Below, piece by piece: positions 15,396 to 44,149 of a stretch of DNA of 64,000 nucleotides (within the stretch, counting starts at the first letter, position 1; every line of letters starts with the position of its first letter). This stretch comes from Isoetes taiwanensis (lineage: Eukaryota; Streptophyta; Lycopodiopsida; Isoetales; Isoetaceae), in assembly GCA_021234155.1 (NCBI GenBank), contig JAJEKV010000004.1, positions 6,016,109 through 6,080,108 on the forward strand. Reading direction: 5' to 3'. The notes under the pieces were generated by a model, which worked only from the letters and a program-made list of their open reading frames with translations, had not been told where the DNA came from and made no database searches. The translations under genes were made by a program, and so were the position numbers.

Positions 15396-15436
15396 GAGTT
15401 CTCGAGATCCGGAAGATCTCGGTAGGACCTCCAAAA

Positions 15437-17342
15437 TGTTGACCCTAAACCTGGCTTAAAGGTCAACCACAAGGAACCAATTCAAGTTTTCACTCAAATT
15501 GGGGTTAGAACCTCCGCATCACTTGAGGTGATCACCTATGCAGGAAATCCCAAAAACAAGTTCAAAAAGTTTGAGTTCTATACCTTTCCCATTTCCAAAA
15601 AATGGTACCTTTGCCAAAACAAATGTGGTGTCGAGGTGCAGATCGATCTTTTAAGTCAGATGCAATAGACTTGGTCAAAAAAGTGGTAGTTAACCAACAG
15701 TAAAACCTCTGACCAAGTCAGAGACTTAATCTGTGAGTTATTCGAGCTCAAAGTGGGGTCAAATTTTGGTCAATAGAGGCCAAATGTAGAAAACAGTGAT
15801 CAGAAATTGAGATTTGGAGTTGCCAATCATCTTCTTGAGAAATTCCAAAGTAGATAGGTTGCAATGGTGCTAGGGAAGAGGGGCAATCAATCAAATCTTC
15901 ATTTGGATGTGTAGAAGTATTTTTTGTGACTAGATTTGGCAAAATACAGTCAAAACTGTCCAAACCCGAGAGCAATTTTTTTTGAATTTGAGCTATACTT
16001 GGTATTTTTGAATGATTCCAACTCCTTTGGTTTAATTTTCTGTAGAATATTTTGTAGCAAGAATTGTAGAATAACATATCAGAAATGGATTTGACAACTT
16101 GGCAATTGATTTGAATTGATATGGAGGCAAATATATCATGATAACAGAATATAAGGATGCTTCATAGCTTTTAATCACAGGAAAATAATCTTCTCAAGTC
16201 AATAAATAATTTTTTGAAGGTAATGTCAACTAGATCTTGTGAATCCAATTGAGGAGAGCTCAAGAACTTCAAGGATCGTCCAGATCTTGCTCAGCAATGA
16301 TCAATGTAGAATCAATACTACGGGCCTTCAAAATGTCGAGATTGTGTTCCCCGCTTTATAGTTTCAAATTTCGGTTCCAAAGTTTCGGGTGATAAATTTA
16401 GGCTTAAATTGTTGCTTAAGTTCGAATCCAAGAATAGATTGGTTGCGAGGGGAGAATGGAGCGATGGCGTGATTCGAGCCGGGGTTTCCAATTTTAGGGT
16501 TCTTCACCAGATTTTCGCTTATTTTTTGTGCGATACGGTTTTCGTATTTCTGGAGGAATATGCCCTGTATATGCTGTATTTGGCCACTTAAAAAACTTGG
16601 CTAATGGTTTTAAGGCTTTTTCCATGGAATACCTAAAAAAGGGTTATAACTTTTCAACCATGGGGAAGGATATCCACACGTGCAAAGGGATATAGAATCT
16701 TTAGAGCATCTTTTGACAAGGTTTAGGGTATACCAAAGGGAGCATGATGGGGTAGGAATGGAGATAAAAGAAATCATTAAAGGCTAGTAGGAAGATAAGA
16801 ATAGGAATGCAAAAGAGGGAAATAATAACCTTGCCACAAGGACTTGAAGTTTTTGAATAGTGACATTTGGAGGAATTGACAAGGGATTTGAGCAAAATGG
16901 TAGGTATGGCAAGGTGAGCATGGCAAGGAAATAGGCAATAGGTATGAAGGAGCAAATGCAAGAGTGAACAAAAGGGGGCATAAATATAGGAAAGGAGGCT
17001 AGGAAATTCCAAGGAGCAAGTAAGAATGGCTAGAGAATGAAACAAAATACCATGGGGTCTTCCAAACTTTGAACTTCCAATCTTCAAAAAATGCCTTCCA
17101 AACTTCTTTACCCAGAATCTTCTAGAGCATATTCTTGACTAAGCACTTTGGCCTTGAATAGAGTACCTCATGTGAGTTTTGAACCTTAAGCTCTTGTTGA
17201 CTTGAAGAACGAACATCCTTTGACCTCCACATCAACATTAAATGCCAAGAATCTTCCAAACTTTGACCTAGTATTCCAAGATTAGCTGACCTAGTTTTGA
17301 ATGCACGGATCACAATTAGCATGTTGCCCTTTGTGGGCAACA
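15437..17342 (-). repeat. Tat-family 5' LTR
   Basis: A 1.9-kb LTR with TGTTGACCC at 15437 and ending GTGGGCAACA at 17342 (minus orientation). It begins the internal region ending at 15436. It is close to the LTR at 242-2184. The differences cluster at CTG/CAG sites around 15500-15530 and 16300-16530, and a stretch of about 70 bases corresponding to 843-910 is missing. Confidence 0.9.
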
Positions 17343-17649
17343 TGTTGTTATCCACCTTTGGAGGGTTCCAGAGCGTGGCGTCTATGAGATTAATCGCATC
17401 ACTCAACTACCTTCTCATGATGATCCCGATTGCGAATGAGCTTCTTCATTCATGTATGCTATGCCTCTTATATGAGTTCTATGTATATGCTATGCCTCTT
17501 ATATGAGTTATAAGTATGTAACCATAAGTGATACATGTGATCCGTCTATTTACCGCACATTTTCAATTTGGAAAGCTCTTGGCCATTTTCCTTACGTGTA
17601 GATTCTAAATTCAGTTCAGCATTCTCTTCGCAGTGTGTGGAATAGTCTG
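17343..17649. other. Flank between LTR and first palindrome array
   Basis: No gene seen. Contains a 23-bp direct repeat (ATGCTATGCCTCTTATATGA at about 17456 and 17488). The boundary of element X probably lies here, but I found no terminal repeat. Confidence 0.5.
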
Positions 17650-17840
17650 TTTCGCACCGTAGTCACGGTGCGAAATTGCGCCCTCCAAAAACTTTGGAAC
17701 TACTATTTTCGCACCGTGGCCACGGTGCGAAATAGACCTTCCCAAAGAATGTGGAATAGTCATTTTCGCACCGTGGCGACGGTGCGAAATAGACCTTCCC
17801 ACAGAATGTGGAATAGTCATTTTCGCACCGTGGCCACGGT
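17650..17840. repeat. Palindrome array 1 of element X (57-bp period)
   Basis: Four copies of a 26-bp palindrome, TTTCGCACCGT, four bases, ACGGTGCGAAA, starting at 17650, 17707, 17764 and 17821 (last one half-size). The spacing is exactly 57 bp. Spacers are similar to each other within this array (AGACCTTCCCA, GTGGAATAGTCA) but unlike those of arrays 2 and 3. It lies just beyond the 3' end of the H3-like gene. Confidence 0.95.
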
Positions 17841-17972
17841 CAACACTAGTAGATAAATGCACAGCCGCAATAAATAGAATAGCAAATAATTACAGATAAA
17901 TATAAACCACTCATCACGATAAATACTGAAAAACTCATATATTAACAACCAAAAAAGTGTTACAAAAGGATG

Positions 17973-19408
17973 CTAAGGGAGGCATCCACGGAAGTATCTA
18001 GCTAAGGCATAGTCGTTGCCCTGCACAGTAACACATCCTCTGTGCACACAACAGCGGACACTGTCCTCAAAGAGGCTAATTAGATGAGCCTCTGCTGCCT
18101 CTTGCAGTATGTCCAAGGCCTCTGCTTGGATTCTATTCACCTCCTCCTCCACCATCGGGACGAAGTCTGGTGCTCTGTCCCTCCTCTTCCTCCTTGATTC
18201 CTTCCTCCTCTCAATAATTTCCTGCATCTCAAACCTGACCATTCTAGCGAAGGCAAGCTTGGGAATCGAGGAGGTTTGGGGTGCGTGCACGCCGATTACC
18301 TAATCTCCCTCAAAGCCTGAGTGCCAGGAGGAGCACCCTTTATCTTCTCAGGGCCACCATATCTAACACTAGGCTCCCCTTCCTTAGGCTTCCGCTTATT
18401 ACCAAGCTTATCTGTCTCCTTGGCTGCATCTCTCTCAGCTTGTCTCCAACTAGGAACAAGCCTAGGAGGCTTTGGCTTACTCGGATTTCTTCGGCTGGAT
18501 TTTTAGCTTTTCTTGCCGGGCTTCCTATTACCCATTCCCTTTCGAACTAGGTTTCCGGGATCAACATCTTTGGTCCACCGATGATGATCTTCTTTGGGCT
18601 GGTGATCCTGGCGATCTTCTTTGGACCAAGTGATCTTGATCTTGCGGCCCGTCGATCCTGGCTGATCATCTTTGGACCAGGTGATCTTTGGTCATCTTTG
18701 CACTTCCATAGTCTGCAGTTCTTCCTCCCCCCCACCACTGCCAAACGTTTGGGAATGCAATAGTGGTCCCAACGTCTGAGACGAGGAGATAGCCTGATTC
18801 ATGAGCCACTGGGCACCATGGCCCTGGTCAACCGGCCAAAGCACCTGGCCGTGTGTAGAACCCGGTTTCTTTCAACATGTAATCCAGCTCATTACACAAG
18901 AACCGAATGGCCGTGGCTTCGCGTCGGGACATGGATGCCATCAACCCGGGCCACACGACGTATAACCCACGGCTTCCTCCAATGTCTCCGCCTCGTGGGT
19001 GGGGAACGGCAGGTCGGGTCGTTGGATCGGAAGTGTCCCGGTCCACCGCTACCACAATACAATCGAATATTGTATTGTGGCGCATAGCGTCACGGAAAAC
19101 TCCTTCCCCAACAACCTTACCAGCCTTCAGCAAGGTGACCCGACTAGGAAGCACGGTCGGGTTTTCGAAATATTCGTCCACACTATTATTAATAGTGTGG
19201 ACGACATTTCCAAGGGTTTGCCCGAAGTCTTCTGTAAGGACAACCTCATCTACGTCCATCTGCTGGCTTGTGATGGGAATAACCGCCTTGCCCTCTCGTG
19301 ATTGGAATAGAAGTCTCTACCACCGCTAGTAATGACCTCGTCAACATTCTCAAGCCGGCTGGTCAAGCCATTTTGTGGGATTTCAGAGCTAGCGCCTTCC
19401 ATGGACAT
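17973..19408 (-). pseudogene. Element X gene A: protein with C-terminal histone H3/CENH3-like fold
   Basis: Minus-strand gene of roughly 480 codons from ATG 19408 to the stop at 17973. The last 110 residues match histone H3: PGTQALREIR, then a frame change, IPKLAFARMVR (start of the fold), a basic insertion in loop 1, QAEALDILQEAAEAHL and LISLFED (alpha 2), and a C-terminal helix ending YALARYFRG. The QAEAL start of alpha 2 and the long loop 1 are more like plant CENH3 than canonical H3. The N-terminal 300 residues (VVLTEDFGQTLGN, GLYVVWPGLMASM) are not recognised; a basic linker repeats KITWSK twice. Lesions: a frameshift near 19290, TGA stops near 18827 and 18690, TAA near 18508, and a break after REIR at about 18298. 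Several breaks lie at CTG or CGA sites and may be errors or C-to-T decay. It sits between arrays 1 and 2. Confidence 0.8.
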
Positions 19409-19493
19409 GAGCGGATTTTAGCAAGGAGAAGAAATTCAAATAAGCAATATTGTCTGTCCCGATCCAATAAACCCCTAGACTGAAAAATGTTCA

Positions 19494-19795
19494 TGGTAGC
19501 CACGGTGCGAAATCGGGCAGTCCAAAAACTGCCGACATCCTGTTTTCGCACCGTAGCCACGCTACAAATAGGGCAGTCAAAATCGCCGACAACTGTTGTT
19601 TTCGCACCGTAGCCACGCGGTCTTGAAATCGGCGATCCAAAACTGCCGACATCCTGTTTTTGCACCGTAGCCATGGTGCGAAATAGGGCAGTCCAAAAAC
19701 TGCCGACAGCCTGTTTTTGCACCGTAGCCACGGTGCGAAATCGGGCGGTCCAAAAACTGCTGACATCCTGTTTTCGCACTGTAGCCACCATTAAA
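19494..19795. repeat. Palindrome array 2 of element X (57-bp period)
   Basis: About six units with the same GCACCGT-AGCC-ACGGTGC core as array 1 and again about 57-bp spacing. Each unit also has a second inverted repeat in the spacer, GGCAGT, six bases, ACTGCC. Units near 19565 and 19615 are damaged (CACGCTAC, CACGCGGT). It separates gene A from gene B. Confidence 0.92.
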
Positions 19796-19979
19796 GAATA
19801 CCTAACATATACATCTAACAAGGATTTATTGCTCACATTGAATTCTAACAATTAATGAATATCATAAATGAACATTCATACAAAAGCAATTTCGTCATAT
19901 GAAAACAATTGATACATTATAGAAAAGACAATTTATAGAAAAGACATTATATTAATACAAAAGTTTTTTAAGTACATTT

Positions 19980-21433
19980 CCTTTTCTTGGCATCAGGGCC
20001 TGTAGTACCCGAATCAAAATCTTCTAAGTCCTCTTCTTTTACTCCAGCCCCTATCTAACAGATACAATATGTCAGGGTCCTTCTATGCACAGGACAAGCG
20101 CAGTGTTTCCTTGTCCGCTCCACACAAGCCTAGAGCTGCTTTATTTGCAAGGACAGAGTACATTTTGAAGCCCCCGAAGACATACATTGCGATAGCCCCA
20201 TCTCATCGCTACCACTTTCGATCATAGTTTGAGGCTAGGGGCACGTGGTTGCCAGCTAATGACAGAGCCTTAAGCTTGAGGACCTCCTAGTACTCCGGAT
20301 GGACTATATTTATTGTGAAACACAATAATTTCCCCCTTGTGAAGGTAGCCCATATAATGTGCACATCAAGGCCCCGACCTAGGGTAACTCTCTGATGCCT
20401 TGCACAGAAGTCATCAATAAATAACTCCTGCATAAAAGAAACATCAGATTCAAGAAGAAATAGAAAATGAAACCAGATAAATACCTCTCTTTTGTCCCGT
20501 TCGACAACAGCTGGCTTTGTTATTTTGAAAGAGGACTTCGACAGCTCACGTTCTATGAATACAGAAGCAGTGTTTGAAGAGCTAGCAGCTTCAAAATTGA
20601 CATCTTTCACTGCTTCATACCCTGCTTCAGCTTGCTGCATGACAATTTCAAATGCATCCTCTGGAGGTATTGAGGATCCATCATAAGTCACAGCCTCCAT
20701 CATTTGTCTGGGGACATCAGTCTCAAAGTCTATAAGTCCTCCCAGGCCTACAACATGGGCATATATCTGGCCCAATATCTCGTCTTCTCTCAATCCTGTC
20801 ACTTCAGATATGTCCGGCAGCAACAAGTATGGTTTCCCACCTCGAACCTCGATCCTCTTCCACAACCTCGATCTCCTCATTTTCCAGTACGAGCTTCTCT
20901 TCCTCAGGATCTATCGGCTCCTCTACTGGTGAGGCGGGGCGTTCTATTTGAGCGACCTGTGCACTTGAAGAAGAACTGGCATCTTTGCTTGGCTTAGTGT
21001 AAATCATGTATGTGCTGAACATGATATATAGGCCGAAAAAACTTTCCTTCCCCTCTTGCCTGCACAGTTCTGCAGGTAGTTTCTTCAAGAACCTTCTAAT
21101 TCGGTCTTGATCAGGTTTCGAAAACATCTTAAGAAAAGCTTGCATGCTTAGTGAAGGCAAACCAGTCACATGACATGGTTTCACGTCAGGACCAGCTCCA
21201 GCCATGAAGCTATGAAGGATGCCGCCATATGCATCAGTAAACCTGTTACACTCTGCCATAATGTCTACGCTCAGGCAAAAATTATTATATACAGTGGTTG
21301 CATCCACTGGCTCCTCTAGCTCCTCCTCGAACTCTTCAGGATGCTTCTGACGAAAATCCCGTTCTTTCTCCACTATTTTGTCATACCATGCGCTAAACAA
21401 ACTCCCATGCCTTATCGACCCGCTATTTGCCAT
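19980..21433 (-). pseudogene. Element X gene B: unknown acidic protein
   Basis: Starts at ATG 21433 (MANSGSIRHG) and runs to about 19980. Residues 1-180 form a predicted helical domain (VYNNFCLSVDIMAECNRF, PSLSMQAFLKMF, FSTYMIYTKPS), followed by a serine run and an acidic stretch (EEPIDPEEEKLVLENEE). A frame change near 20860 leads to EVRGGKPYLLLPDISEVTG and on to 20287. Beyond 20287 the same frame continues with TAG and TGA stops (TAG at 20287 and near 20109). The segment 20428-20484 starts GT and ends TTTATGCAG on the minus strand and could be a 57-nt intron, but it is also open in frame. I do not recognise the family. By eye, the first domain weakly resembles the protein at 42240-42830 in element Y. 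Confidence 0.65.
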
Positions 21434-21509
21434 TCTCGTGGAGCAAATACCGATTTATGACAGTTAGAATGTGAGCACCTTTGTAGCGGCTTGATTTGCA
21501 AGAGAGACT

Positions 21510-21880
21510 AACAACGTGGCAACGATGCGAAAATAACACTTCCTAAATTTATGCTATGCACAAATTCGCGCCGTGGCTACGGTGCGAAAACAAGACTTCG
21601 ATAATTTATTGTATTTACAATTTTGCACGGTGGCTACGGTGCGAAAATACCCCTTCCATTTTTTATTCTATGCACATTTTTGCACCGTGGCTATGGTGCG
21701 AAAACAACCCTTCAATATCTTATTGTATGTATAATTTCGCACCGTGGGTACGGTGTGAAAATACCCCTTTCATTTCTTATGCTATGCACATTTTCAAGAT
21801 TGCAGGGTTACTTGGTGCGAAAATGGCCCTTCCATATATTATGAGAGCCACAATTTCAAGACCGTAAGTGCGGTGTGAAA
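21510..21880. repeat. Palindrome array 3 of element X (57-bp period)
   Basis: About seven units around GCACCGTGGCTACGGTGCGA, 57 bp apart in the best-kept part (unit from 21571 to 21627). Its spacers (TATTGTATTTACAATTTT, TTATGCTATGCACA) are AT-rich and differ from those of arrays 1 and 2. The outer units are diverged. It separates gene B from gene C. Confidence 0.9.
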
Positions 21881-21960
21881 ACACGTCCACAATCAGAGGT
21901 GTACATAATTTCGCAATTAATATACAATAGATCTCCAATTAACAATCACTTATATTTATA

Positions 21961-22800
21961 TTAGATAGATTCATATACAGATATGACTTTGGGTGGCATG
22001 CATGACCCCAATTTATAGTATTCTTCTCTCAAGCTTTCCCACCTTCGGCCATCTATCATGAAATGGAAGAAATTTAAGTCCGTCTCAAACTCTAATTGCC
22101 GCCCGAACATCGAATAGAGACCACTTTCGCTCTCGCTCTCGGACTTTTTTGAACAGCCGGATTATCCTTATGAATGTTCAAGTCTATGACAACTAATGAG
22201 TGCCATCATTGTCATCTTGTTCGACAGAATCCGGGCGTACTTTCTTCCTTCCTTCACTCGACATTTCGCCATCACCTATACTTAAAAGTGACATACGAGT
22301 TTGCTTCCTAATGCAATATCCGAACCGAACCGATGTCTCGACTTATCCGCATTCAAGACATTCACTCCATTGTGAAGTCGAACACTCCAACCTTCAAGAA
22401 ATACACTATCTAAAAACTATCCACCGATTTGTTGAACTGTAAACATCTTCAAGGTCTTCTTTACATTGTCGGCTCTTGAATATGGCAATGAACAGATCAA
22501 TTCCTAAATTTATCTTCACATGCCCGCATGAGACTCCTCCCTTCTCCTTCAATGCAGAACATTTCCTGCGACAACTTACTACGTGCTAATAAGATAGAAG
22601 TGGCATCCGTGAGGCCTGCCCAGATAAATCGGACAGTCCGGGCAATGGAAGCTCGCTTAGCTTGGATCTTCGTGGAGAGTATTCATACCTCCGAACCATA
22701 TACCCCTTTCTCTCGAAATGCATGGTGTGCTACCTTTGAACAACAAGCAGCCCATATCTTGGTGAAAGCAATGGAATACACCGCTTTGCTTCGAGTGTGA
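21961..22800 (-). pseudogene. Element X gene C: unknown protein, fragmented
   Basis: Coding-like stretches on the minus strand in changing frames: SKAVYSIAFTKIWAACCSK and ARTVRFIWAGLTDATSIL (22800-22480), DLFIAIFKSRQCKEDLEDV (about 22500-22440), a polar part SSEGRKKVRPDSVEQDDND (about 22260-22200), and a C-terminus with FETDLNFFHFMIDGRRW ending VISVYESI and TAA at 21961-21963. No family recognised. Frame breaks are frequent, so the gene is either decayed or carries consensus errors. The region just upstream (22800-22920) could hold an intron. Confidence 0.45.
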
Positions 22801-22920
22801 AGAGACAAGTGTTCTCCACATCGATATACACAAACCCGAGAGAATAGGAATGAACCGGATAAGTAACTGAACTAATTTGAATATGGATTGCATAGAATTA
22901 CATACTCACAATTTGCTTCT

Positions 22921-24622
22921 AACCGTGGAAAAGTTAGGTTAAACGCTTATTTTTTCTTTTTGTCATATCTGTTGGAGTGTATACATGCCTTACTTGTACA
23001 AATATCTCTTTGCCTGATCGAACCGACCACCAAAGCCTTCCAATGTGCGTAAACATCATTTCTCCTGCATCTTTTGACTTCGCCATTCACCTCGCATTGC
23101 GGGTTGGAGTGTAACAAAGCTCCCTCGACATCACGAAGCTTTCAAACTCATTTCCGACCGTGATAGAGCTTATAGCCATCTAGTCACGTAATTCAAATCG
23201 AATGTGGAGCGGAATCGAAATACTAGGAAATGCTACGCGATTTTACCTTGATCGAAGTTTTTCGTGGTCGAAACTCCCTTTAGCGCAGTCGGCAGTTCGA
23301 AAGTGAACCGAACCGAAGCTCCCTTTGTCGGGCAATCGATCTTCGGCGCAAACTCGCTGTGGAAAACACCGAGGGAATTGAGGGCGGGAGCTAACGGTTA
23401 TAATTGCCACGCGTAATGCGTACGGACACCGGAAAGGCGAAAGCAAGGCTCGGTAAAAAAGTTCTGTACAAGCTCGGCTCCCCATTGGCCGCGAGCTTTT
23501 TGACGTGGCATCGAGTAAGGGCCCTTATTTGACCTCAAAAAAACTCTAATGATACCGCTGTCAATTCTGAAAGACAATATCTTTTGCTTGAATTAATTAG
23601 AACATCTGAATCTTACGAAATCACTCCCAAGAACAAAAACCGTGAAGGAAACAGGGCTTTCAAATCTTGGCAGTGGCATGGCGTGTAAATCTTCTGCAAT
23701 AAATCAGTCCATCGGCTTCATTTAATGCCTAAAGATCAACGTCACAAAATCCTCTGTAATAAATGAGATGTCGATGTCACGAAATCCTCCCTAATAAATA
23801 AGCATGTATACATGTCTCATCCTGCGTTGGGAAAGTTCCCGTTCCCTGGGAGACTGTTGAGCTACCATCCAGCCTGGCAAAAAATCCAGCCTATGTGGCA
23901 AACCTACAAAAGCCCTCCTGCCCCGATTTTGGTTCAGATCCTTCCTGCCCAGAAAGCTTAGGGCCAAAACTTGTACCCTTGCTGTTTATCTACTAGGAAG
24001 CAGGCGAATCCGACTCTTGCTAATCCGACACTTTTTATCTGTCTTAACATCGAGACATACATTACCAATTCCTTCCTTTCATGTATTTCTTGTAAATCTT
24101 TTCAGAGTCATAGATGGCGGTATGTTGCATCTGGCCCTTTTTTCTGAACTCTCTAGGTTAAAATTACATATTATGCTCAAGAATATCTTGTACTTTAAGC
24201 ATAGGCAAAGATGGAGATGGATATATCCTGTACTTTTAAGCATAGGCAAAGATGGAGATGGATTTTTAAGGAAAATGGATGATTACTTTTGTAAATGAAA
24301 GGGAAGGATGAATAATACAGTATTGCAACCCTTATCAAAGATTTTCTTACCATCTTCTTGTGCAAGTTTCAGTAGGTCTAATCCATAGCATATAGCTATG
24401 GGTTTGGTATTACATGTAGCCAGAAATAACTCTTGGTAATCTCGTAATCTATGGTTAGTACGAGAAGCATGTATCAGTAATCTTTTGAGGTCATAGTGGT
24501 AAATCCATCAGAAGATGCATTTCTGATATCTTTCAATATGTTCTTTGGAGATATTCGCAATCTAAAAGGGTATTTAAAGAGAAGCATATTTACTGTTATG
24601 GGAGTATCAGCTAGAGTCCCAC
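22921..24622. other. Right part of element X and flank; no gene recognised
   Basis: 23150-23500 is CpG-rich with a short open frame (23243-23485, minus) of no known type. 23684-23822 is a copy of 35677-35816. A 36-bp direct repeat (CTTGTACTTTAAGCATAGGC) occurs at 24187 and 24226. No right end of element X could be defined. Confidence 0.5.
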
Positions 24623-24627
24623 TGAGC

Positions 24628-26577
24628 TGTTGCCCCCAAAGGGCAACATGCTAATTGTGATCCATGCATTCAAAACTAGGTCAACTAATCTTGGGATACT
24701 AGGTCAAAGTTTGGAAGATCCTTGGCATTCAATATTGTTGTGGAGGTCAAAGGGTGTTCATTTTTCAAGTCAACAAGTGCTCAAGGCTCAAAACTCACAT
24801 GAGGTACTTTATTTGAGGTCAAAATGGTTAGTCAAGAATATGCTCTAGAAGATTCTGGGTTATGAAGTTTGGAAGACATTGCTTGAAGTTTGGAAGATTC
24901 CCCTATATGGTTCCACCCTTATCACCTTGCTTTTTGACTAGCCACTTTTCCCTTCTTATATCCCTAACCTATCTTATTTCCATTATTTGCTAATTTCCCC
25001 ATGACATCTTCCTTATTCATTTTTCATATCCACTTTTACACCATTGCTCTCCAAATTTGCTCCTTCTTTGCCATATTTGCCAAGTTGCTCATCTCTAGTC
25101 ATATTTTCCTTTTCTTTGCACACCCTTATGGGACCTTGTTGTTTTAGTTTTTCTCATGTTATCTTCCCTCACCTTTGTGACCACCATTCATTTTTCTTCT
25201 TCTACCATTGCACCTCATGGCGTGTACTTACTCAAGGCCTAAAAATGCCCCAGAATATTCTATGATTCCATCTCAAGCATGCAAAGGTTCCATGGTCTCC
25301 AAAATTCCCAAGTATTCCTTGCCTTTTTTCTAAGAGATCCTTAGAACCATGCTCGAAAAATCCAAAATAGCCAAAATACAGCATATTCTGGAAATATACC
25401 TCTAAAAATACGGAACCGTATCGCGCCATTTTCACGAAAAATACGCCCGAGAACCCTACATCCGAGTTTCTGGCTTGAATCACGCCGGATTTGATTCCAT
25501 TCTCCCTGCAACCAATCTATTCTTGGATTCCGGAACTTAAGCAACAATTTAAGCCTAAATTTATCACCCGAAATCATTGGAACCGAAATTCAAAAACTAT
25601 ATACAGGGGAAACACAATCAGAACATTTTCGAAGGCCCAGAAGTATTCAGATCCTACATTGATCATTGCTGAGCAAGATCTGGACGATCCTTGAAGTTCT
25701 TGAGCTCTCCTCAACTGGATTTACAAGATCTAGTTGACATTACCTTCAAAAAATATTTATTGACTTGAGAAGATTATTTTCCTGTGATTAAAAAGCTATG
25801 AAGCATCCTTACATTCTGTTATCATGATATATTTACCTCCAAATCAATTCAAATCGATTGCCAAGTTGTCAAATCCATTTCTGATATGTTCTTCTACAAT
25901 TCTTGCTACAAAATATTCTACAGAAAATTCTAGTGTGTTTTTCTATTCTTTTGGATCACTTGCCATCTATTCTTAGGGCCTGTGCAAGCCAAGGGAGTTG
26001 GAATCATTCAAAAATACCAAGTATAGCTCAAATTCAAAAAAATTGCTCTCGGGTTTGAACAGTTTTGACTGTATTTTGCCAAATCTAGTCACAAAAAATA
26101 CCTCTACACATCCAAATGAGGATTTGATTGCTTGCCCCTCTTCCCTAGCACCATTGCAACCTATTTACTTTGGAATTTCTCAAAAAGATGATTGACAACT
26201 CCCAAATCTCAATTTCTGATCACTGTTTTTCACATTTGACCTCTATTGACCAAAGTTTGACCTCACTTTGAACTCGAATAACTCACAGATTAAGTCCCTG
26301 ACTTGGTCAGAACTGTTGGTTACCTATAACTTTTTTGACCAAGTCTACTGCATCTGACTCAAAAAATCGATCTGCATCTCGACACCACAATTGTTTTGGC
26401 AAAGGTGCCATTTTTTGGAAATGGGAAAGGTATAGAACTCAAACTTTTTGAACTTGTTTTTGGAATTACCTTGCATAGACTGATCACCTCAAGTGATCTG
26501 GAGGTTCTAACCCCAATTTGAGTGAAAACTTGAATTGGTTCCTTGAGGTTGACCTTAAGTCAGGTTTAGGGTCAACA
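24628..26577 (+). repeat. 5' LTR of the complete Tat element
   Basis: 1,950 bp, starting TGTTGCCC and ending GGGTCAACA. Both ends can fold: TGTTGCCC with GGGCAACA at the start, GTTGACC with GGTCAAC at the end. The first 600 bases differ from the 3' LTR at about one position; most other differences sit at CAG/CTG sites between 25200 and 25720. Confidence 0.95.
25598..25603 (+). promoter_or_regulatory. LTR TATA box
   Basis: TATATA within ACTATATACAGGGG. The same motif recurs in the LTRs at 46425-46435 (minus) and 33809-33818, and as CTATAAACAGG near 1220, so it is the likely Pol II core promoter of this family. Confidence 0.6.
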
Positions 26578-26580
26578 TTT

Positions 26581-26598
26581 TGGAGGTTCTACCGAGAT
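26581..26598 (+). promoter_or_regulatory. Putative primer-binding site
   Basis: TGGAGGTTCTACCGAGAT begins three bases (TTT) after the 5' LTR. Position and initial TGG fit a tRNA primer site; the tRNA was not identified. Confidence 0.55.
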
Positions 26599-26618
26599 CT
26601 TCCTGGATCTCAGGACTC

Positions 26619-27908
26619 ATGGCTCCAAAGCAAAAATTTCCAGCAGAATCAGAACCATTGGAAGATGTTGATGTATCAGATCATTGCAGAGAGAGGCCAT
26701 TGCCTCCTAGTTTCTCAGCCAGCTTACTTCAAAACATGCCATACCAGTTTGAGTTGAATGTCCTTGTTCCCTTGCCTACCTTTGATTCCAGCATGCGTGC
26801 TAACAGCTTTTTGAGAATATTTGAAGACTATTACAGGGATTATGGTTTCAAGAAAGGATGCAAGCTTTCAGAATTTGAAAAATGTTTCAAAGATGAGAGT
26901 GAAGCTGGTGCTTGGTTAACTTATGAGAAGTTAATGGGTACCACCTCATGGGATGAACTCGTCAAGAAATTCCTGGATAGGTTTGGTAAGTTAGCTGCTC
27001 CCAAAGATTTGGTTAATGAATTGCAAAGTTTTTCTATACATGCAGGAGAGAGTGTGAATCAGTACAAAGAAAGATTTAGCACATTTATGAGCAGGTGTCA
27101 AAGAGCACAAGTTACAATCCCCACTCTTTTCCTAGTTACTGCTTTCATCAATGGCTTGGAAAGAAGACCAGATATCCAAAGGAAATTGCTTAAGATCCAA
27201 GCTGCTGAAGGATTTGACTCTATATACAAAGTTTTTGCCAAAACCACTGACCTAACTCAGATGCTCTCTACTTTGCCTGACAAGCATCATGTTCCTCACC
27301 ATAGCCATGATCCTTTCTACCCTGAAGCTTCTGATATCCATTATGATCATCACCCTTCTATTCCAGTTTATGCCATACAAAAAGAGAAAAAGAAACCTAA
27401 AGAGGAGGAAGCCAATTCTCAAGTTGCAGAGGTCAAGTCAGACCTATCCAAAGTTACTGAAGCCTTGGCAGAAATAACCAAACAATTGGTTGAACTCAAG
27501 GCTGCAAGAACAGGTAAAACTTACCCTGAATGTGTTTATTGTAATAGGAATTCCCATCCATCAGAAATTTGCTATTGGCAGGTGTGTCCCAAGTGCAATA
27601 GAAAAGGTCATTTTGGAAAGGAATGCCCTGTTTGTTCTTTTTGTAAAGAAGTTGGCCATACTGACGCTAGGTGTGCTGTTAAAGAATATTTTGCTAAACA
27701 GGAAAAGGAAAAGAAGCCAGAGCCAAAACCTCCTGTTAGATTTGCTGAACCAAGCACCTCTATAACATTTATTCAAGCTACTGAAGCTCCTAAGTCAGAA
27801 GAAGTTATGGTGGTGCAAACCAGAAGTATGAATGAAGCCCATGTGCATGCTGAACCAAGTAGGCATTGTCTTCTCCTCCTATGGTGGAAGCACCTGCTCA
27901 AATCATAG
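26619..27908 (+). pseudogene. Gag of the complete Tat element
   Basis: Start chosen at ATG 26619 (MAPKQKF) because all copies share this codon just after the primer site; an upstream in-frame ATG at 26580 overlaps the LTR junction. A retrotransposon Gag capsid-like domain (LRIFEDYYRDYGFKKG, QYKERFSTFMSRCQ) is followed by a Lys/Glu-rich linker and three CX2CX4HX4C zinc knuckles at 27531-27572, 27585-27626 and 27633-27674. The frame is lost near 27860, where a short deletion removes residues still present in the copy at 51930-52616. The ancestral protein ran on into protease. Confidence 0.9.
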
Positions 27909-28560
27909 CCCCACCTCCTCAACAAAAATATGGTAAGAAGGATCAAGACTTTGATGAGGTTGATGTTCTGCTTAAAAATTCCAAAGTAAGTGTGGACCTT
28001 TTCACATTGCTAAAAATTGCACCTAGCTATAGAAAAAGAGTATTGCAGCAAACTGGTAGTGAGGCATTGAATGCTTGTGTGAATTTTACTGATGCTACTG
28101 ACCTTATTCTAGCACAGAATGAAGAAGACCCTGGAGCATTCAAATGTTCAGCTGCTTTAGGAGGGTATACCTTTTCAAATATGTTACTTGATGGGGGTTC
28201 CCCTTTAAATATCATGCCATATCATATTATGAAGAAATGTGGTTTCGAGGTGGATAAGAAAGCTTCTATGTTATTAAAATCTTTTTACAATGCCAAGATT
28301 TCTCCTATTGGTGTGGTGACTAAGGTGCCTGTTATCTGAGAGGGCATAACCGTGAATGCTAACTTTATTGTGGTGGCTTTTGAAGATATAGGAGATGAAT
28401 CTGATATCTATGACTTACTTTTAGGGAGGAGATGGTTAGCCACCGTGGGATGCCGGCCACCCTCGGTCTCAAGGGAGATGTACCATCTCCAATGGCTCTC
28501 AAACTGCTACAATTTATAATCAAGAGGGCTCCTATGACTCCAAAGAAGAGGTAAATTTTA
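27866..28560 (+). pseudogene. Protease region of the complete Tat element
   Basis: Retropepsin-like segment: the active-site motif is LLDGGSPLNIMP, with the Asp codon at 28190-28192, so DGG replaces the usual DTG/DSG. The second half (NFIVVAFEDIG, YDLLLGRRWLA) is present but in another frame after about 28335. The breaks at 28330-28350 and 28440-28480 fall at CAG/CTG sites where other copies read cleanly, and may be sequence errors. Confidence 0.85.
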
Positions 28561-28568
28561 TTAAAGAA

Positions 28569-29945
28569 ATGCTAATTGAAGAGCCTTTGGGATCTTACAG
28601 GGTAAAAAATATAAAACCAAGAAAATATGAAATGGTTCCTCTTATTATGGAAAGTGTACCTCCCAGCATACAAGGACCAACAGGGTTCTTATGGTTTGAT
28701 GGAGGTATTTCTAAAAAACTAAATGTTGCATCATCTGCTGCCATTTTGAAAGACTCTTCTCACAAGCTCTTAGCTAAAGTAGGAAGGATCTTTCCTCAAG
28801 TCACCTCTAATGTGGCAGAATATAAGGCTTTGATTGCAGGTCTCCAGGAAGATAAATCTATGGATATTGCCAATATTCACATTTATGGTGATTCACAATT
28901 AATATGCAAACAAGTTTCAGGGGAGTATCAAACAAAAAATGCAGATATGGAGCTCTTGAAGAATCAAGCAATGGGAGTACTCTCGAGTTTTGCTTCATGG
29001 AAAATCACTCATATCCCCAGGGAACAGAATTTTGAAGCTGATGCTTTGTGTAGGGAGACTCTCATGTCACATTTAACTGAGGGAGCCATTCCTGAAGATG
29101 ATCTTGATGACAATGAAGTAAAAGCACTCTGTCCTATTTTAACCATTGATGCATCAGAAAAAAAGGATATTGAGGAGATTGTGATCACAAAAAATGGTAC
29201 ACCTAGAACTCTGTTTGTTGGAGATCTGATTGAATATCAAAACAGGGAGAGCATACAAATGTTTTTTGAAGAAAGAAAAGATGTATTTGCCTGGGACTAT
29301 TCAGAACTATCAGGTATCAAAACTGAGGTATGCCAATTTGAAATTAAAATCAAGGAAGGTTGTAAACCTGTTTTTCAAAAATTAAGGAGGATTAATGCTT
29401 CACTTATGGGGCTAATCAAGGATGAATTGAATAAGATGTTAGATGCAGGTGTGATTATTGAAATCATTAATCCTGAATGGGTATCTTGCATTGTTCCTGT
29501 AGAGAAGAAAAGTGGTGCTTTAAGAATTTGCATTGATTATCGAGATCTCAACAAAGCTACCATCAAGGATTGTTACCCTTTGCCTTTTTTAGAAGAGATC
29601 CTATATGCTGTAGCAGGTAAGGAAGTGTATTCATTTTTGGATGGATTCTCAGGATTCAACCAGATCAGCATCAAAGAAGAAGACCAGCCAAAAACTTCCT
29701 TTATCACTCCCTGGGGTACATATGCTATGAAAAGAATGCCTTTTGGTTTGACGAATGCTCCAGCCACCTTCCAAAGGGCAATGGATGTCATTTTCAAATC
29801 AATGTCTGCTGAAGAGTTCAGGGTGTACTTAGATGACCTCTGCTTAGGCTCTAATCCATCTAATCATGTGGAGCTACTTGCAAAAATTTGTTCTTTGTGC
29901 AGGAGCTCAGGAGTCAATCTAAATCCAAAGAAATGCAGGGCATGA
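28569..29945 (+). CDS. Tat pol: DEDD RNase H followed by reverse transcriptase
   Basis: One open frame of 458 codons. The first 150 residues are an RVT_3/archaeal-type RNase H with D (WFDGG, 28698-28700), E (AEYKALIAG, 28818-28820), D (IYGDSQLI, 28890-28892) and D (EADAL, 29040-29042). A linker of about 80 residues and the Tat-type segment DVFAWDYSELSGI lead to RT: RICIDYRDLNKA, FLDGFSGFNQI (Asp at 29640-29642), MPFGLTNAPATFQ, YLDD (29825-29836). The frame ends near 29940, where about 40 bases (IFFASKGQLLGH in other copies) are missing. RNase H upstream of RT is seen in all three copies in the window. Confidence 0.9.
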   Translation: MLIEEPLGSYRVKNIKPRKYEMVPLIMESVPPSIQGPTGFLWFDGGISKKLNVASSAAILKDSSHKLLAKVGRIFPQVTSNVAEYKALIAGLQEDKSMDIANIHIYGDSQLICKQVSGEYQTKNADMELLKNQAMGVLSSFASWKITHIPREQNFEADALCRETLMSHLTEGAIPEDDLDDNEVKALCPILTIDASEKKDIEEIVITKNGTPRTLFVGDLIEYQNRESIQMFFEERKDVFAWDYSELSGIKTEVCQFEIKIKEGCKPVFQKLRRINASLMGLIKDELNKMLDAGVIIEIINPEWVSCIVPVEKKSGALRICIDYRDLNKATIKDCYPLPFLEEILYAVAGKEVYSFLDGFSGFNQISIKEEDQPKTSFITPWGTYAMKRMPFGLTNAPATFQRAMDVIFKSMSAEEFRVYLDDLCLGSNPSNHVELLAKICSLCRSSGVNLNPKKCRA

Positions 29946-30045
29946 AGTATCTAGCCAAGGCATTCAGGTTGCTCAAGACAAGATTGAAGCCCTCAAAAAA
30001 TTAGCACCTCCCAAGAATCTAAAACAGGTCAAAAGTTTTGTTGGT

Positions 30046-31970
30046 ATGACAAGTTTTCTCAGGATGTATATTCCTAATTTTGCTCATATTTTGAGCCCTA
30101 TTTCAAGATTGACAAGGGTAGGCAAGTTCTCCAAGTCTGAAAGTAAGCATATACCTATCACATGGACTTCAGAATGCCAAGAGGCTTTTGACTTTCTCAT
30201 TCAATCCATATGTGAAGCCACACTTTTGAGGAAACCAGATTTGAATATGCCATTTGAAGTTTATATTACTGTTACTAAAAAAGCTATAGGGTTAGCCATT
30301 TTGCAGGAAAAGCACACCATAGTGTTTGCAAGTAAACAATGGTCTGCTCTAGAGGAGAGGTATACCAGAATAGAAAAAAGTGCTGCTGCCCTTATGTTTC
30401 TCATCAATAGGCAAGGACACTTGCTCCTGAAGAGTCAAGTTCAAGTCTACATGAAGCAAAATCCAATGGGTCTACTATTTGGTAAGGCAACCAGTAAGCC
30501 AAAAATCCAAAGGTGGGCTTGTAAGTTGCAAAGTTATGAGATTTCTGTAAAAGAATTACATTTGGTACGAAGTCCTAGCCTTTATTTGCCTTATATATTT
30601 TTTGACCATGAAGATGAGTTAGATACTGCTGACATTTCACTTGCAGTAGCTCATGTAAAGGTAACTCCAGAAGATCAAGCTGATGGTGGGTGGCAACAAC
30701 CTATCAGAAACTTCTTACAACATGGAATTATCTCTTCAAGCCTCACTTCAAACCAAAAAAGGAGACTCAAGGATAAATGCAGACAATTCAAGATGATAGA
30801 CAATGTCTTGTGCAAAGTCAACCGAGATGGAGTCTTGTTGAGATGTGTGAATGAAAGTGAATCTGCTCTAATCATCAGAGAAATGCACAAAGGTATTTGT
30901 GGAGGGCATTTTGCTGGTGATACTACAGCAAAAAAGATTCTCAGGTCTGGATACTATTGGCCTACTGTTTTTAAAGATTGTTATGATATTATAAAGACTT
31001 GCCATCAATGCCAAATCTTTAGCAAAAGAATCTTACTTCCAGCTACCCTTAATCCCATCATATCTCCAGGGCCTTTTCAAATTTGGGGGTTAGATTATAT
31101 TGGCCCTATTAATCCTTCTTCTGCAGGTCAACATCAGCATATCATTGTGGCCACAGATTATTTTACTAAATGGGCGTGGTTATACCTTTGAGGCAAAGCT
31201 AATGCTGCCACAACTGCAAGATTTTTACATGAGTATGTTTGCTCCAGGTTTGGTATTCCTTTTCAGTTGCATTCTGATAGGGGCACGCCTTTTGTTAATG
31301 AAGTTATTACTAACTTGATGGACATCTTGAAGGTCAAGCATACCAAGAGCTCCTCATACTATCCCCAAAGTAATGGACAAGCTGAAGCCACTAACAAAGT
31401 GTTGAAAAATATCTTGCAGAAGACAGTTGAGATCAACAAGAGAGATTGGCATGTCAAAATAGTGGATGCACTTTGGGCTTATAGAGTCACTATCAAAACA
31501 GCTACAAATCATACACCCTTCAATTTGGTTTATGGCATAGAGGCAGTCTTACCAGTGGAACTCGAGTTGCCCTCCCTGAGGTTAGCTTATAAATTATGTT
31601 TACCTTTTGAACATGCCTTGCAGGAGAGATTGGATGCCTTACTGCACCTAGATGAATATAGGATGGAGGCCGAGAATACTAATTTGCTGAAAAAAGGCCA
31701 AAGATCCGGTTGCATTCAAGGTCGCACACAAAATACAAGGCACCTTTAAGCAGGGAGAGCTTGTTCTCAAATGGAACAAGTCAAAGGAAGACTCACCGGC
31801 AAATTTGACAATATTTGGGAAGGACCCTTTGTAGTATTGGAACCCTGCAGTACTAACTCTTATTGGCTACAAGAGGTTGCTTCAGAATGCCACCGCCAAA
31901 TCCAATCAATATCTTGCACCTGAAGGTATTGGGACCAAAGATGCTTGCTTGTCCCTATTCTCTCATTAAA
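30046..31970 (+). pseudogene. Tat pol: RT thumb, dead RNase H, integrase
   Basis: 30046-31191 is open: RT thumb (SFLRMYIPNFAHILSPIS), then a Ty3-type RNase H whose catalytic residues are absent (TVTKKA instead of TDAS, EKSAA instead of EKELL, YMKQN instead of TDHKA), then integrase with zinc-site half CHQC and first Asp in GLDYIGP (31093-31095). After a break at 31165-31200 the second Asp (31276-31278) and the Glu (31384-31386) follow, 36 codons apart, the D,D(35)E spacing. The C-terminal domain (31690-31970) is frame-shifted at several CTG/CAG sites. Confidence 0.88.
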
Positions 31971-32837
31971 AGTTTGGAGATTTATGGTAGGTTTAAAGTA
32001 GTTAAATCAGTTAGATTTTTAAGCACACTATTTCAGTAGATAGAATAGTCTGACTTTGAGCACTTTACTCTAATAGAATTGGTTTCATGTTCTTAGGTTG
32101 ATTTGACTAGATAGCAGTACAGATGATCTCAAGAACAGGGTTGATACTAATGATTACCAAGTGTCATATGCAGGAGCATTCTTTCTTCCATTTTTATTCA
32201 CCTGTCTTAAGCATTCCTACCATCCATCCAACCCTCTATTCTTGCTTTTCCATACCTTAACAGCACTCTGCAAAATCACCTTCACCATCATAGCAGAGTT
32301 GCAAGGTTTTGAGACTAATTGGTTTATGTGTTTCCATGATAGGTGTCCTCCATATTTTTCATCTGTCATAAGTGGCCCTACCTTCCATCTGGACTCCTTA
32401 TTCTTGTTCTCATTCCCTAAAGAAAAAAGCACTCTGCAATTCATCTTTACCATCACAGCAGAGTTGCACTTGTTGAAGATCAAGAAGGATACACACATTT
32501 TCTTGTTTTGGCGAAGTTTCAAACACTTGTACACTCACTTCATCTCCATTTCATCATCATCTTGTCATATTCACATTCACTTTTATCCCTTCTCACTCAC
32601 TATATTCCATTCACCATCATTCCACCATCACCTTGTCATTTTCACACTCATTTCTGCCTTTTCTCACTCACCATATTCCCTCCACATCATTTCATTATCA
32701 CATTTACACTAACTTCATCAACATTTGCACTTTTATTCTATCATAGACACCTTGGTACAAAGTTGAAGACCCCTCTAGTTATTCATTCTTGACATTATAT
32801 GGCTGAGGGGACCAGCCTTTTTCTTGTTTTGGCGAGA
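31971..32837 (+). other. 3' untranslated region of the complete Tat element
   Basis: Carries two stem-loops 166 bp apart: GCACTCTGC/GCAGAGTTGC at 32263-32302 and at 32429-32467. A TC/CA-rich region follows. The conserved block TGAGGGGACCAGCC lies at about 32803-32817. No purine tract touches the 3' LTR; the bases just before it read TTTTGGCGAGA. Confidence 0.75.
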
Positions 32838-34794
32838 TGTTGCCCCCAAAGGGCAACATGCTAATTGTGATCCATGCATTCAAAACTAGGTCAACTAATC
32901 TTGGGATACTAGGTCAAAGTTTGGAAGATCCTTGGCATTCAATATTGTTGTGGAGGTCAAAGGGTGTTCATTTTTCAAGTCAACAAGTGCTCAAGGCTCA
33001 AAACTCACATGAGGTACTTTATTTGAGGTCAAAATGCTTAGTCAAGAATATGCTCTAGAAGATTCTGGGTTATGAAGTTTGGAAGACATTGCTTGAAGTT
33101 TGGAAGATTCCCCTATATGGTTCCACCCTTATCACCTTGCTTTTTGACTAGCCACTTTTCCCTTCTTATATCCCTAACCTATCTTATTTCCATTATTTGC
33201 TAATTTCCCCATGACATCTTCCTTATTCATTTTTCATATCCACTTTTACACCATTGCTCTCCAAATTTGCTCCTTCTTTGCCATATTTGCCAAGTTGCTC
33301 ATCTCTAGTCATATTTTCCTTTTCTTTGCACACCCTTATGGGACCTTGTTGTTTTAGTTTTTCTCATGTTATCTTCCCTCACCTTTGTGACCACCATTCA
33401 TTTTTCTTCTTCTACCATTGCACCTCATGGCGTGTACTTACTTACTCAAGGCCTAAAATGCCCTGCAATATTCTATGATTCCATCTCAAGCATGCAAAGG
33501 TTCCATGGTCTCCAAAATTCCCAAGTATTCCTTGCCTTTTTTCTAAGAGATCCTTAGAACCATGCTCGAAAAATCCAAAATAGCCAAAATACAGCATATT
33601 CTGGAAATATACCTCTAAAAATACGGAACCGTATCGTGCCATTTTCACGAAAAATACGCTCGAGAACCCTACATCCGAGTTTCTGGCTCGAATCACGCCG
33701 GATTTTATTCCATTCTCCCTCGCAACCAATCTATTCTTGGATTCCTAACTTAAGCAACAATTTAAGCCTAAATTTATCACCCAAATCACTGAACCGAAAT
33801 TCAAAAACTATATATATAGGAAACACAATCGTAACATTTTCGAAGGCCCGTAAGTATTCAGATCCTACATTGATCATTCTTGAGCAAGATCTGACGATCC
33901 TTGAAGTTCTTGAGCTCTCCTCAACTGGATTTACAAGATCTAGTTGACATTACCTTCAAAAATTATTTATTGACTTGAGAAGATTATTTTCCTGTGATTA
34001 AAAAGCTATGAAGCATCCTTACATTCTATTATCATGATATATTTACCTCCAAATCAATTCAAATCGATTGCCAAGTTGTCAAATCCATTTCTGATATGTT
34101 CTTCTACAATTCTTGCTACAAGATATTCTACAGAAAATTCTAGTGTGTTTTTCTATTCTTTTGGATCACTTGCCATCTATTCTTAGGGCCTGTGCAAGCC
34201 AAGGGAGTTGGAATCATTCAAAAATACCAAGTATAGCTCAAATTCAAAAAAATTGCTCTCGGGTTTGAACAGTTTTGACTGTATTTTGCCAAATCTAGTC
34301 ACAAAAAATACCTCTACACATCCAAATGAGGATTTGATTGCTTGCCTCTCTTCCCTAGCACCATTGCAACCTATTTACTTTGGAATTTCTCAAAAAGATG
34401 ATTGACAACTCCCAAATCTCAATTTCTGATCACTGTTTTTCACATTTGACCTCTATTGACCAAAATTTGACCTCACTTTGAGCTCGAATAACTCACAGAT
34501 TAAGTCCCTGACTTGGTCAGAGGCTCTACTGTTGGTTACCTACAACTTTTTTGACCAAGTCTACTGCATCTGACTCAAAAAATCGATCTGCATCTCGACA
34601 CCACAATTGTTTTGGAAAAGGTGCCATTTTTTGGAAATGGGAAAGGTATAGAACTCAAACTTTTTGAACTTGTTTTTGGAATTACCTTGCATAGACTGAT
34701 CATCTCAAGTGATCTGGAGGTTCTAACCCCAATTTGAGTGAAAACTTGAATTGGTTCCTTGAGGTTGACCTTTAAGCCAGGTTTAGGGTCAACA
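32838..34794 (+). repeat. 3' LTR of the complete Tat element
   Basis: 1,957 bp, TGTTGCCC to GGGTCAACA, directly followed by the target-site duplication TGAGC. Differences from the 5' LTR between 33430 and 33930 are mostly of the form CTG to CTCG or CAG to CGT. Confidence 0.95.
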
Positions 34795-42239: not shown

Positions 42240-42830
42240 TCAATAAAGTGCTCGACATTGTCGTCGTCGCCTTCTTTATCCTCTTCTTCCCCTGATCCGA
42301 GTCGTCGTACTCTAGAAGTAAGCCGTTTTCTGCAGTGGAGTCAAGGACTCCTATGTTCAAGGTCTGATATTTTGGTCTCGGTCTTGTGGAATAGGAATAT
42401 GGCCTAGGTAGTTGTGTAAGAGAAGTACCTTCTTCTGCTTACTGTCATAGTCATGTAGTCTGGCATGCGGGCAGCTTTGTTGTCTAGGTACCTAGCAATG
42501 TTTGGGATATGGCTTAAGGTGGCTTGAAGGGATGCCTTGGATACGAAGAATCCTATGCAGGGAGGCAGTTCCTGTAGTGTGGGGCCTACTTTCTCTTGAA
42601 ATTCTTGGATGACTTTTTGGTAGAAGGGGGTGGCTCTTATTATGGTTGTTACGCCAAATTCCTTTTGGAAAACTGAGAAGATAGAATTCACATCTACCTT
42701 GGCTATGTGCGATGTGGCGCTGTACCATCACCTGAATGATGAAGTAAGCTGGGGATATCAAACATAAGTATGAGCGCATCAGGATGTTAGACGATAGGCT
42801 TGGAGCGAGGAGCAAAGTTGTAAGTTGCTA
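42240..42830 (-). pseudogene. Element Y: unknown protein resembling gene B of element X
   Basis: Minus-strand frame with IAKVDVNSIFSVFQKEFGV, ATPFYQKVIQEFQ, SKASLQATLSHIPNI and RRRYFSYTTT, followed by a TAG stop (perhaps from CAG) and an acidic tail (GSGEEEDKEGDDDNVEHF). The order VD-hydrophobic, PC, S-hydrophobic-QA-x-L, aromatic helix parallels gene B of X (SVDIMAE, PCHVTG, SLSMQAFL, FSTYMIYTK). The similarity is weak and seen only by eye. The 3' end runs into the LTR at 42230. An upstream exon may join at the acceptor-like TTCATCATTCAG near 42730. Confidence 0.5.
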
Positions 42831-43304: not shown

Positions 43305-43422
43305 TGGAGGCTTGTTTCGGCTTGGTTTGACATGTTTAAAACCCATACAACAAGTTATTTACTTATATTACTCAAAAATTCTTAATACAACAGTCTAAAA
43401 AATGATTATCTATTGGCCTTCT

Positions 43423-44010: not shown

Positions 44011-44149
44011 CTCAGTGTACTTTGGTAGTCTTTAAAACTAACCCACATATCCCTAAACTCAAGGTTTATAAGATGGCTTCTTCGATCTTCTTATCAATTC
44101 CTAGCCAAGGTCAAAATGGCCTTATAATGCGTCTCATTTCAAAGGTCAT

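What the first reader, a model, noticed from the sequence alone, without database searches (positions are those of the whole stretch)
17650..22800. Three-gene block with a CENH3-like histone gene and intergenic palindrome arrays
Seen: three minus-strand gene-like regions (A, B, C) alternate with three arrays of one 26-bp palindrome, and gene A ends in a histone H3 fold (LQEAAEAHLISLFED, ALREIR). Known: the QAEAL start of alpha 2 and a long loop 1 are CENH3-like features. Inference: this is a mobile or formerly mobile element that carries its own centromere-type histone together with repeated binding sites. It might recruit or imitate centromeric chromatin, or resist silencing. I know of no described plant element with this plan.
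Basis: partly seen in the sequence, partly recalled or inferred. Interest (0 to 1): 0.93.

Follow-up and report, generated by a model that had tools for sequence, protein, structure and literature searches.

The report
Plant transposon carrying its own histone
The block is the right-hand part of a roughly 13,000-base jumping gene, repeated in this plant genome, that carries a gene for its own histone H3-like protein beside strings of a repeated palindrome, which suggests a selfish element that may bring its own chromatin building block.

Summary
Window 17343-23551 is the retained right part of a ~13 kb DNA transposon. Eight other places in the same genome match 4.8-5.15 kb of the 5.15-kb query at 85-89% identity. 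Comparing copies gives 32-bp terminal inverted repeats. The left ~7 kb, cut off here by an LTR retrotransposon, encodes in other copies a transposase-like protein and two paralogous genes, with a further array of the palindrome.

Gene A ends in an H3 fold. Gene B shows the clearest constraint. Gene C is open in 3 of 9 other copies. Palindromes are 78% identical between arrays, spacers 34%.

A second family, seen once (L025), repeats array-B-array-H3-array with the same palindrome core (B 49% identical). A third, seen once in this window (42362-45668), has an H3 gene starting MARTKQTAR, different palindromes, and gene E, a distant B homologue.

So H3 plus B looks like a conserved module, not a one-off capture. 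'Centromere-type' is unproven: grouping with ordinary H3 is not rejected (AU p=0.142). Function, probably anti-silencing, is inferred.

The parts
17343..23551 (-). Retained right part of the ~13 kb DNA transposon; left ~7 kb separated off by a retrotransposon insertion at 17342/17343
   Evidence: copies in own genome, ends by comparison of copies
23520..23551 (.). Right terminal inverted repeat (ends ...CTCTAATG); left partner CATTAGAGTTTTTTTGAGGTCAAATAAGGGCC seen in 5 other copies
17636..17840 (.). Array 1, 57-bp units with 26-bp palindrome, downstream of gene A
19491..19788 (.). Array 2, between gene B and the start of gene A
21515..21884 (.). Array 3, between gene C and the start of gene B
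17973..19408 (-). Gene A (broken here): N-domain (about 18831-19316), basic linker, H3 tail and alphaN (18299-18502), H3 fold (17973-18290)
20000..21433 (-). Gene B (broken here): open runs 20804-21433 and 20287-20880; 57-nt GT..AG intron-like stretch 20428-20484, absent from the distant homologues in L026 and L020
21964..22881 (-). Gene C (broken here), open for 246-306 codons in 3 of 9 other copies
15436..17342 (-). 5' LTR of the retrotransposon that cuts the element on the left
24628..34794 (+). LTR retrotransposon to the right of the element, with 5-bp duplication TGAGC on both sides
43426..45168 (-). Gene D of a second, divergent H3 element: starts MARTKQTARMM, ends in an H3 fold (43426-43680); interrupted by a gypsy-type fragment at about 44330-44760
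45390..45668 (.). Two ~69-bp imperfect palindromes upstream of gene D (45390-45457, 45600-45668)
43037..43304 (.). Two ~69-bp imperfect palindromes between genes D and E (43037-43106, 43237-43304)
42362..42754 (-). Gene E remnant, 53% identical over 131 aa to an open 516-codon gene in L026, itself a distant homologue of gene B

Best explanation
It is the right half of a multi-gene plant DNA transposon of a lineage in which an H3-like histone gene (A) and a partner gene of unknown family (B) stay together, each with palindrome repeats at its start. Shown: a repeated element with inverted terminal repeats, the H3 fold, conservation of the palindromes over their spacers, and the H3+B pair in a second and a third family (one copy each). 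Inferred mechanism: an element-encoded protein (B, or the N-domain of A) binds the palindromes as a dimer. There the element's own H3 variant is placed with host H4, giving element chromatin that lacks the usual H3 tail and so escapes H3K9 and DNA-methylation silencing long enough for the transposase to be expressed.
For: 8 further near-complete matches, 85-89% identical; 32-bp inverted ends, 31 of 32 bases, left end seen in 5 and right end in 7 other copies. H3 fold: Pfam 2.4e-11 (8), PDB 1.1e-10 (9), natural copy 3.3e-16. Palindrome 77.6% versus spacer 34.2% identity between arrays. Second family L025: B' 48.6% over 444 aa, N-domain 34% (E 1e-14), H3' 42%, same palindrome core and 57-bp period, same order array-B-array-H3-array. 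Third family D/E in the window; B and E homologous, E 2e-18 or, with composition correction, 1e-16. Amino-acid-change ratios lower for shared than for single-copy changes in H3, A, B, transposase and F. Working analogy: VANC proteins bind tandem motifs in VANDAL elements and remove methylation (passages of PMC5735166).
Against: No functional data. No DNA-binding domain was recognised in B or in A's N-domain. G shows the opposite change ratio (1.58 versus 0.59), counts are small and not tree-based, and raw differences by codon position in H3 are only mildly coding-like (7.2, 9.5, 10.9%). L020 has an H3 next to an E-like gene but no palindromes near it. The D palindromes differ from those of A, and TATAAA lies between palindromes and start in D and E but not in A or B. 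Families two and three rest on one, partly broken, copy each. No target-site duplication was found in 4 complete copies.
Confidence: 0.5

Rival explanations
1. Passenger capture: the transposon picked up a host H3 gene and spread it without using it, as proposed for fungal hAT elements.
For: Fungal precedents. Every copy of A examined carries some damage or lies in a damaged element; singletons evolve neutrally (ratio 0.97, 118).
Against: The H3 fold stays beside the same partner B and palindromes in a second family at 34-49% protein identity; shared changes in H3 are more often silent (9 of 20) than singletons (21 of 75), though this difference is not strong.
Confidence: 0.2
2. Centromere mimicry: the CENH3-like protein places or keeps the element in centromere-type chromatin, for insertion targeting or better segregation.
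For: CENH3-like features: QAEAL or TVDAL at alpha2, LIP before alpha1, long loop 1 (features recalled). Best tree joins plant CENH3, UFBoot 80 (120).
Against: Grouping with ordinary H3 is not rejected, AU p=0.142 (120); long branches; the window holds an intact LRR gene and a glycosyltransferase-8 exon (40), not a satellite centromere. Genome positions of copies were not compared with centromeres.
Confidence: 0.13
3. Transposition complex: the H3-like protein and palindromes help the transposase assemble or bend DNA, rather than alter silencing.
For: An array also lies between the transposase gene and gene G.
Against: Arrays lie at gene starts through the element rather than only near its ends; palindromes also sit beside D and E promoters.
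Confidence: 0.12
4. Ordinary host cluster of H3 variant genes with minisatellites, not a mobile element.
For: Two H3-like genes lie in one window on the same strand (43).
Against: Copies on many contigs with one pair of fixed inverted ends. Flanks beyond the ends differ, except that the L007 and L013 copies share about 10 kb of right flank, a segmental duplication.
Confidence: 0.02

Closest known systems
Fungal hAT transposons carrying histone H3-like genes (Pyrenophora tritici-repentis H3L, PMC3538342; Pseudocercospora fijiensis, PMC6710886; passages read)
   Same: A repeated DNA transposon with inverted ends carries an H3-like gene with a changed tail, beside an ORF of unknown function
   Different: Fungal; hAT transposase, not recognised here; described as captures; no palindrome arrays mentioned in the passages I saw; here the H3 stays with the same partner in a second family
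VANDAL elements with VANC anti-silencing proteins (PMC5735166 and review PMC13317346; passages read)
   Same: Multi-gene plant DNA transposon whose noncoding parts hold tandem arrays of a short motif; arrays diverge between families
   Different: VANDALs are described as non-TIR MULEs; here 32-bp inverted ends, no MULE transposase in Pfam, a histone fold, palindromes. Anti-silencing is not shown here
Plant CENH3
   Same: H3 fold with long unusual N-terminal part, longer loop 1, AEAL-type alpha2 start (features recalled; alignment)
   Different: About 49% identical to H3 and 47-49% to CENH3, so no closer to either; carried by a mobile element; centromere location unknown
RAG1/Transib-type transposases
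   Same: All 12 PDB matches of the transposase-like protein at E<5 are RAG1 chains, at a GS.G.W..(x)G.E..K stretch
   Different: Best E 0.37, not significant; the 12 chains are one family, not independent; ends do not look like recalled Transib ends
Viral histones of DNA viruses (PMC9145170; passages read)
   Same: DNA parasite encoding histones with long tails or a longer loop 1
   Different: No Pfam match to viral genes in the stretches scanned; no relative of either H3 fold in viral contigs

Membership tests
DNA transposon with terminal inverted repeats | Dispersed copies with the same inverted ends | tested here: met
   left end in 5, right end in 7 other copies, 31 of 32 bases inverted
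DNA transposon with terminal inverted repeats | Target-site duplication | tested here: inconclusive
   none clear in 4 complete copies
DNA transposon with terminal inverted repeats | Transposase of a known superfamily | tested here: not met
   no Pfam family above cut-off in the left 7 kb of L016 or in the 680-codon frame of L014 (112); NCBIfam none
hAT element with H3-like gene | hAT transposase domains | tested here: not met
hAT element with H3-like gene | H3-like gene between the inverted ends | tested here: met
VANDAL (MULE) | MULE transposase | tested here: not met
   no Pfam match
VANDAL (MULE) | Tandem arrays of a short motif in noncoding parts | tested here: met
VANDAL (MULE) | Element-encoded protein that binds the motif and removes methylation | not testable with these tools
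   needs binding and methylation data
Histone H3 fold | alphaN and three fold helices matching H3 | tested here: met
   Pfam 2.4e-11 (8), PDB 3.3e-16 in a natural copy with two matched stretches
CENH3 | Closer to CENH3 than to H3 in a tree | tested here: inconclusive
   UFBoot 80 with plant CENH3, but AU p=0.142 for the H3 grouping; reference sequences recalled
CENH3 | Location at centromeres | not testable with these tools
   needs ChIP
RAG1/Transib transposase | Significant sequence match | tested here: inconclusive
   12 of 12 matches at E<5 are RAG1, best E 0.37 (125); 4 of 5 at E<1 with the full protein

The most novel reading that the evidence does not exclude
A new superfamily of DNA transposons that build sequence-addressed chromatin of their own: an element-encoded H3 variant is brought by partner B to palindrome arrays at the element's genes and replaces nucleosomes that could be silenced. 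In the D family the protein keeps H3 residues 1-8 (ARTKQTAR, K4 present) but has methionine where K9 should be (one decayed copy). It could thus stay unmethylated itself and, like known K9M histones (recalled), jam the host's H3K9 methyltransferases.
Probability: 0.25. Interest if true: 0.96.

Novelty: new variant of a known kind. Interest (0 to 1): 0.87.

Why it matters
Transposons are normally the target of host chromatin, not its makers. A transposon lineage that keeps an H3 variant with a partner gene and palindromic sites over long divergence would be a new route of counter-defence. It would offer natural H3 variants for testing which tail residues silencing needs, and it bears on where divergent H3 genes in plant genomes come from.

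Tried and rejected
Protein look-ups with pieces of A and B (E<=0.001) and with a read-through of A (E<=1, 7,685 candidates) found nothing; in the first two the pieces were probably too short for the tool's length limits. Viral and prokaryote collections hold no exact match to the A palindrome pattern; in viral contigs no relative of either H3 fold was confirmed. Five viral contigs matched the D half-palindrome once each; I take these as chance. Ends sought from the window alone at 17355-17665 and 21840-22700 gave 1 candidate, as in shuffled controls; the true ends lie elsewhere. A similarity of A and B was not found. A hAT or MULE identity of the transposase-like protein is not supported. Structure prediction could not be run, so no fold search was made. 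Paper searches for a histone-bearing or similar plant element without a find: 10, 21, 46, 63, 70, 132, for H3K9M, listed only papers on H3K9 methylation or silencing. Genome size 1.658 Gb recalls Isoetes taiwanensis; the paper search for that gave nothing, so I do not claim it. Not searched: PHROGs, PADLOC, Pfam with the open gene C.
Full report
WHAT IS IN THE SEQUENCE. The window lies in a 1.658-Gb genome rich in LTR retrotransposons. The left one has an LTR at 15436-17342, minus strand; the right one spans 24628-34794 and has the 5-bp duplication TGAGC on both sides. Between them three arrays of a 57-bp unit (17636-17840, 19491-19788, 21515-21884) carry a 26-bp palindrome. In 12 aligned units, palindrome columns are 77.6% identical between arrays and spacer columns 34.2%; within arrays 80.6% and 59.3%. 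The palindrome has been held while the rest drifted, as expected of a protein-binding site.

GENES. On the minus strand, gene A (19408-17973) encodes an N-domain, a basic linker and an H3 fold (Pfam E 2.4e-11; PDB E 1.1e-10). It is broken in several places. Gene B (21433 to about 20000) has a 216-codon open run that 0 of 500 shuffles reach; the longest runs in A, D and E are reached by 42, 23 and 39 of 500, and that in C by 233 of 500. Gene C is nonetheless open for 306, 278 and 246 codons in 3 of 9 distinct other copies. No Pfam family passes its cut-off for B, E, F or G (the best, NRD1_2 on B, has 17 bits against a cut-off of 25), nor for fragments of C, nor NCBIfam for B, E and F.

IT IS A MOBILE ELEMENT. 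The own-genome search listed 8 further places where one match covers 4.8-5.15 kb of the 5,151-base query at 85-89% identity, and more in pieces; 29 of 1,031 candidates were scored, so counts are lower bounds. Eight copies, the window's included, are 89-94% identical pairwise. Flanks of 9 copies show where similarity stops: on the right at window 23551, on the left about 7 kb beyond 17650. The ends are inverted repeats, CATTAGAGTTTTTTTGAGGTCAAATAAGGGCC; the left end was seen in 5 and the right end in 7 other copies, and in the pair compared 31 of 32 bases match. Four complete copies span 12,956-14,399 bp. No clear target-site duplication was seen in these four. Two copies (L007, L013) share about 10 kb of right flank, so they are not independent insertions.

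THE MISSING LEFT HALF. In copies it holds, on the plus strand, a frame with a coiled coil (L016:2474-3220) that overlaps in content a 680-codon open frame (L014:1604-3643). Its layout suggests a DDE-type transposase with a CxxC motif (my reading). All 12 PDB matches at E<5 are RAG1, but the best E is 0.37, so this is a lead only. Then come another palindrome array (L016 5121-5524) and two minus-strand genes G and F that are paralogues (39% identical, E 1e-39), followed by array 1, A, array 2, B, array 3 and C.

THE H3 FOLD IS KEPT. In 23 of 23 other copies examined, chosen because they match this region, the H3 stretch is found; 15 of these 23 show no stop in the aligned frame. Natural copies read ...PGTQALREIRYWQARTQPLIPKLAFARMVRFEMQEIIERRKES...NRIQAEALDILQEAAEAHLISLFEDSVRCCVHRGRVTV...LARYFRG, a full alphaN and three helices with 21-23 extra residues between alpha1 and alpha2 (counted). 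Changes shared by two or more copies have a lower amino-acid-change ratio than single-copy changes in H3 (0.46 vs 0.97; 9 silent and 11 not, against 21 and 54), in A's C-terminal part (0.62 vs 0.78), B (0.29 vs 0.52), the transposase-like frame (0.54 vs 0.93) and F (0.57 vs 1.52), but not in G (1.58 vs 0.59). Counts are small and not tree-based, and raw differences by codon position in H3 (7.2, 9.5, 10.9%) are only mildly coding-like. They fit selection on active elements and decay after insertion, without proving it.

THE MODULE RECURS. (i) L025, beyond the end of one copy, holds a second family, seen once: palindromes at 1931/1988, a B' gene (48.6% identical to B over 444 aa, E 1e-122), palindromes at 3716/3773, an H3' gene (itself frame-broken) with a homologous N-domain (34%, E 1e-14), an H3 fold (PDB E 3e-12) and a similar loop-1 insertion, then palindromes at 5367/5424 and 6685. 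Palindrome core and 57-bp period are the same while the proteins are 34-49% identical. (ii) In this window gene D (45168-43426) begins MARTKQTAR, the H3 N-terminus, and ends in an H3 fold (Pfam E 5.4e-18; 49% identical to H3 over 81 aa). It has two ~69-bp imperfect palindromes upstream and two downstream; 8 of the 9 half-site matches in the window lie in these four, against 0.06 expected. Beyond the second pair lies gene E. D and E have TATAAA between palindromes and start, A and B do not. A related E (53% over 131 aa) is open for 516 codons in L026 and is a distant homologue of B (E 2e-18 without, 1e-16 with composition correction). (iii) L020 has a less changed H3 (84% to canonical over 102 aa) followed by an E-like gene (E 2e-6 over 58 aa, not similar to B directly), but no palindromes near it, so the link of arrays to H3 is not universal.

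CENTROMERE-TYPE? A natural A is 49% identical to H3.1 and 47-49% to plant CENH3 (recalled references). Element H3s join plant CENH3 in the best tree (UFBoot 80), yet forcing them with H3 is not rejected (AU p=0.142). Long branches make this weak. I call it an H3 variant with CENH3-like features.

HOW IT PROBABLY WORKS. Palindromes at gene starts plus co-inherited H3 and B suggest that one element protein binds the palindromes and that the element's H3 variant forms chromatin there. No ARTKQ was found in any frame of the fetched A copies; D keeps residues 1-8 but has M at position 9 (one decayed copy). Either would deny the host its K9 silencing mark. This is inference; VANC of VANDAL elements is the working analogy, not a family membership.

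COMPARED WITH THE KNOWN. Fungal hAT elements that carry H3-like genes show that histone-bearing transposons exist; here the transposase is not recognisably hAT and the histone stays with the same partner in a second family. My paper searches found no plant element of this plan; the library lacks most subscription journals.

VERDICT. My estimates: mobile-element family with an H3 gene 0.97; H3 and B as core genes of the lineage 0.85; anti-silencing chromatin mechanism about 0.5.

Noticed in passing
window 45100-45168: Gene D starts MARTKQTARMMTDEG: H3 residues 1-8 kept, methionine at the K9 position (single decayed copy).
   Followed up: partly
L020:5800-6105 (+) and L020:6755-7708 (+): An H3 fold 84% identical to canonical H3 without the usual tail, followed by an E-like gene; possibly a fourth family, no palindromes near it.
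   Followed up: partly
L015, L026, L027 (C1045): An open 516-codon gene E lies between two copies of the A-type element, in a stretch that is segmentally duplicated (about 10 kb at 91%).
   Followed up: partly
window 36431-37744: Intact 438-codon leucine-rich-repeat gene, plus strand, a likely host gene.
   Followed up: no
window 57226-57757: Glycosyltransferase-8 type exon (Pfam on 57226-57522), with a 980-bp direct duplication at 57331/58311.
   Followed up: no
window 23683-23822 and 35676-35815: A 140-bp repeat, 93% identical, just outside the right end of the element and beyond the neighbouring retrotransposon.
   Followed up: no
window 43037-43304 and 45390-45668; arrays 1-3: Some palindromes contain E2F-like words (TTTTGGCGC in the D set, TTTCGCAC in the A set; motif recalled), which would fit S-phase expression of histone genes.
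   Followed up: no
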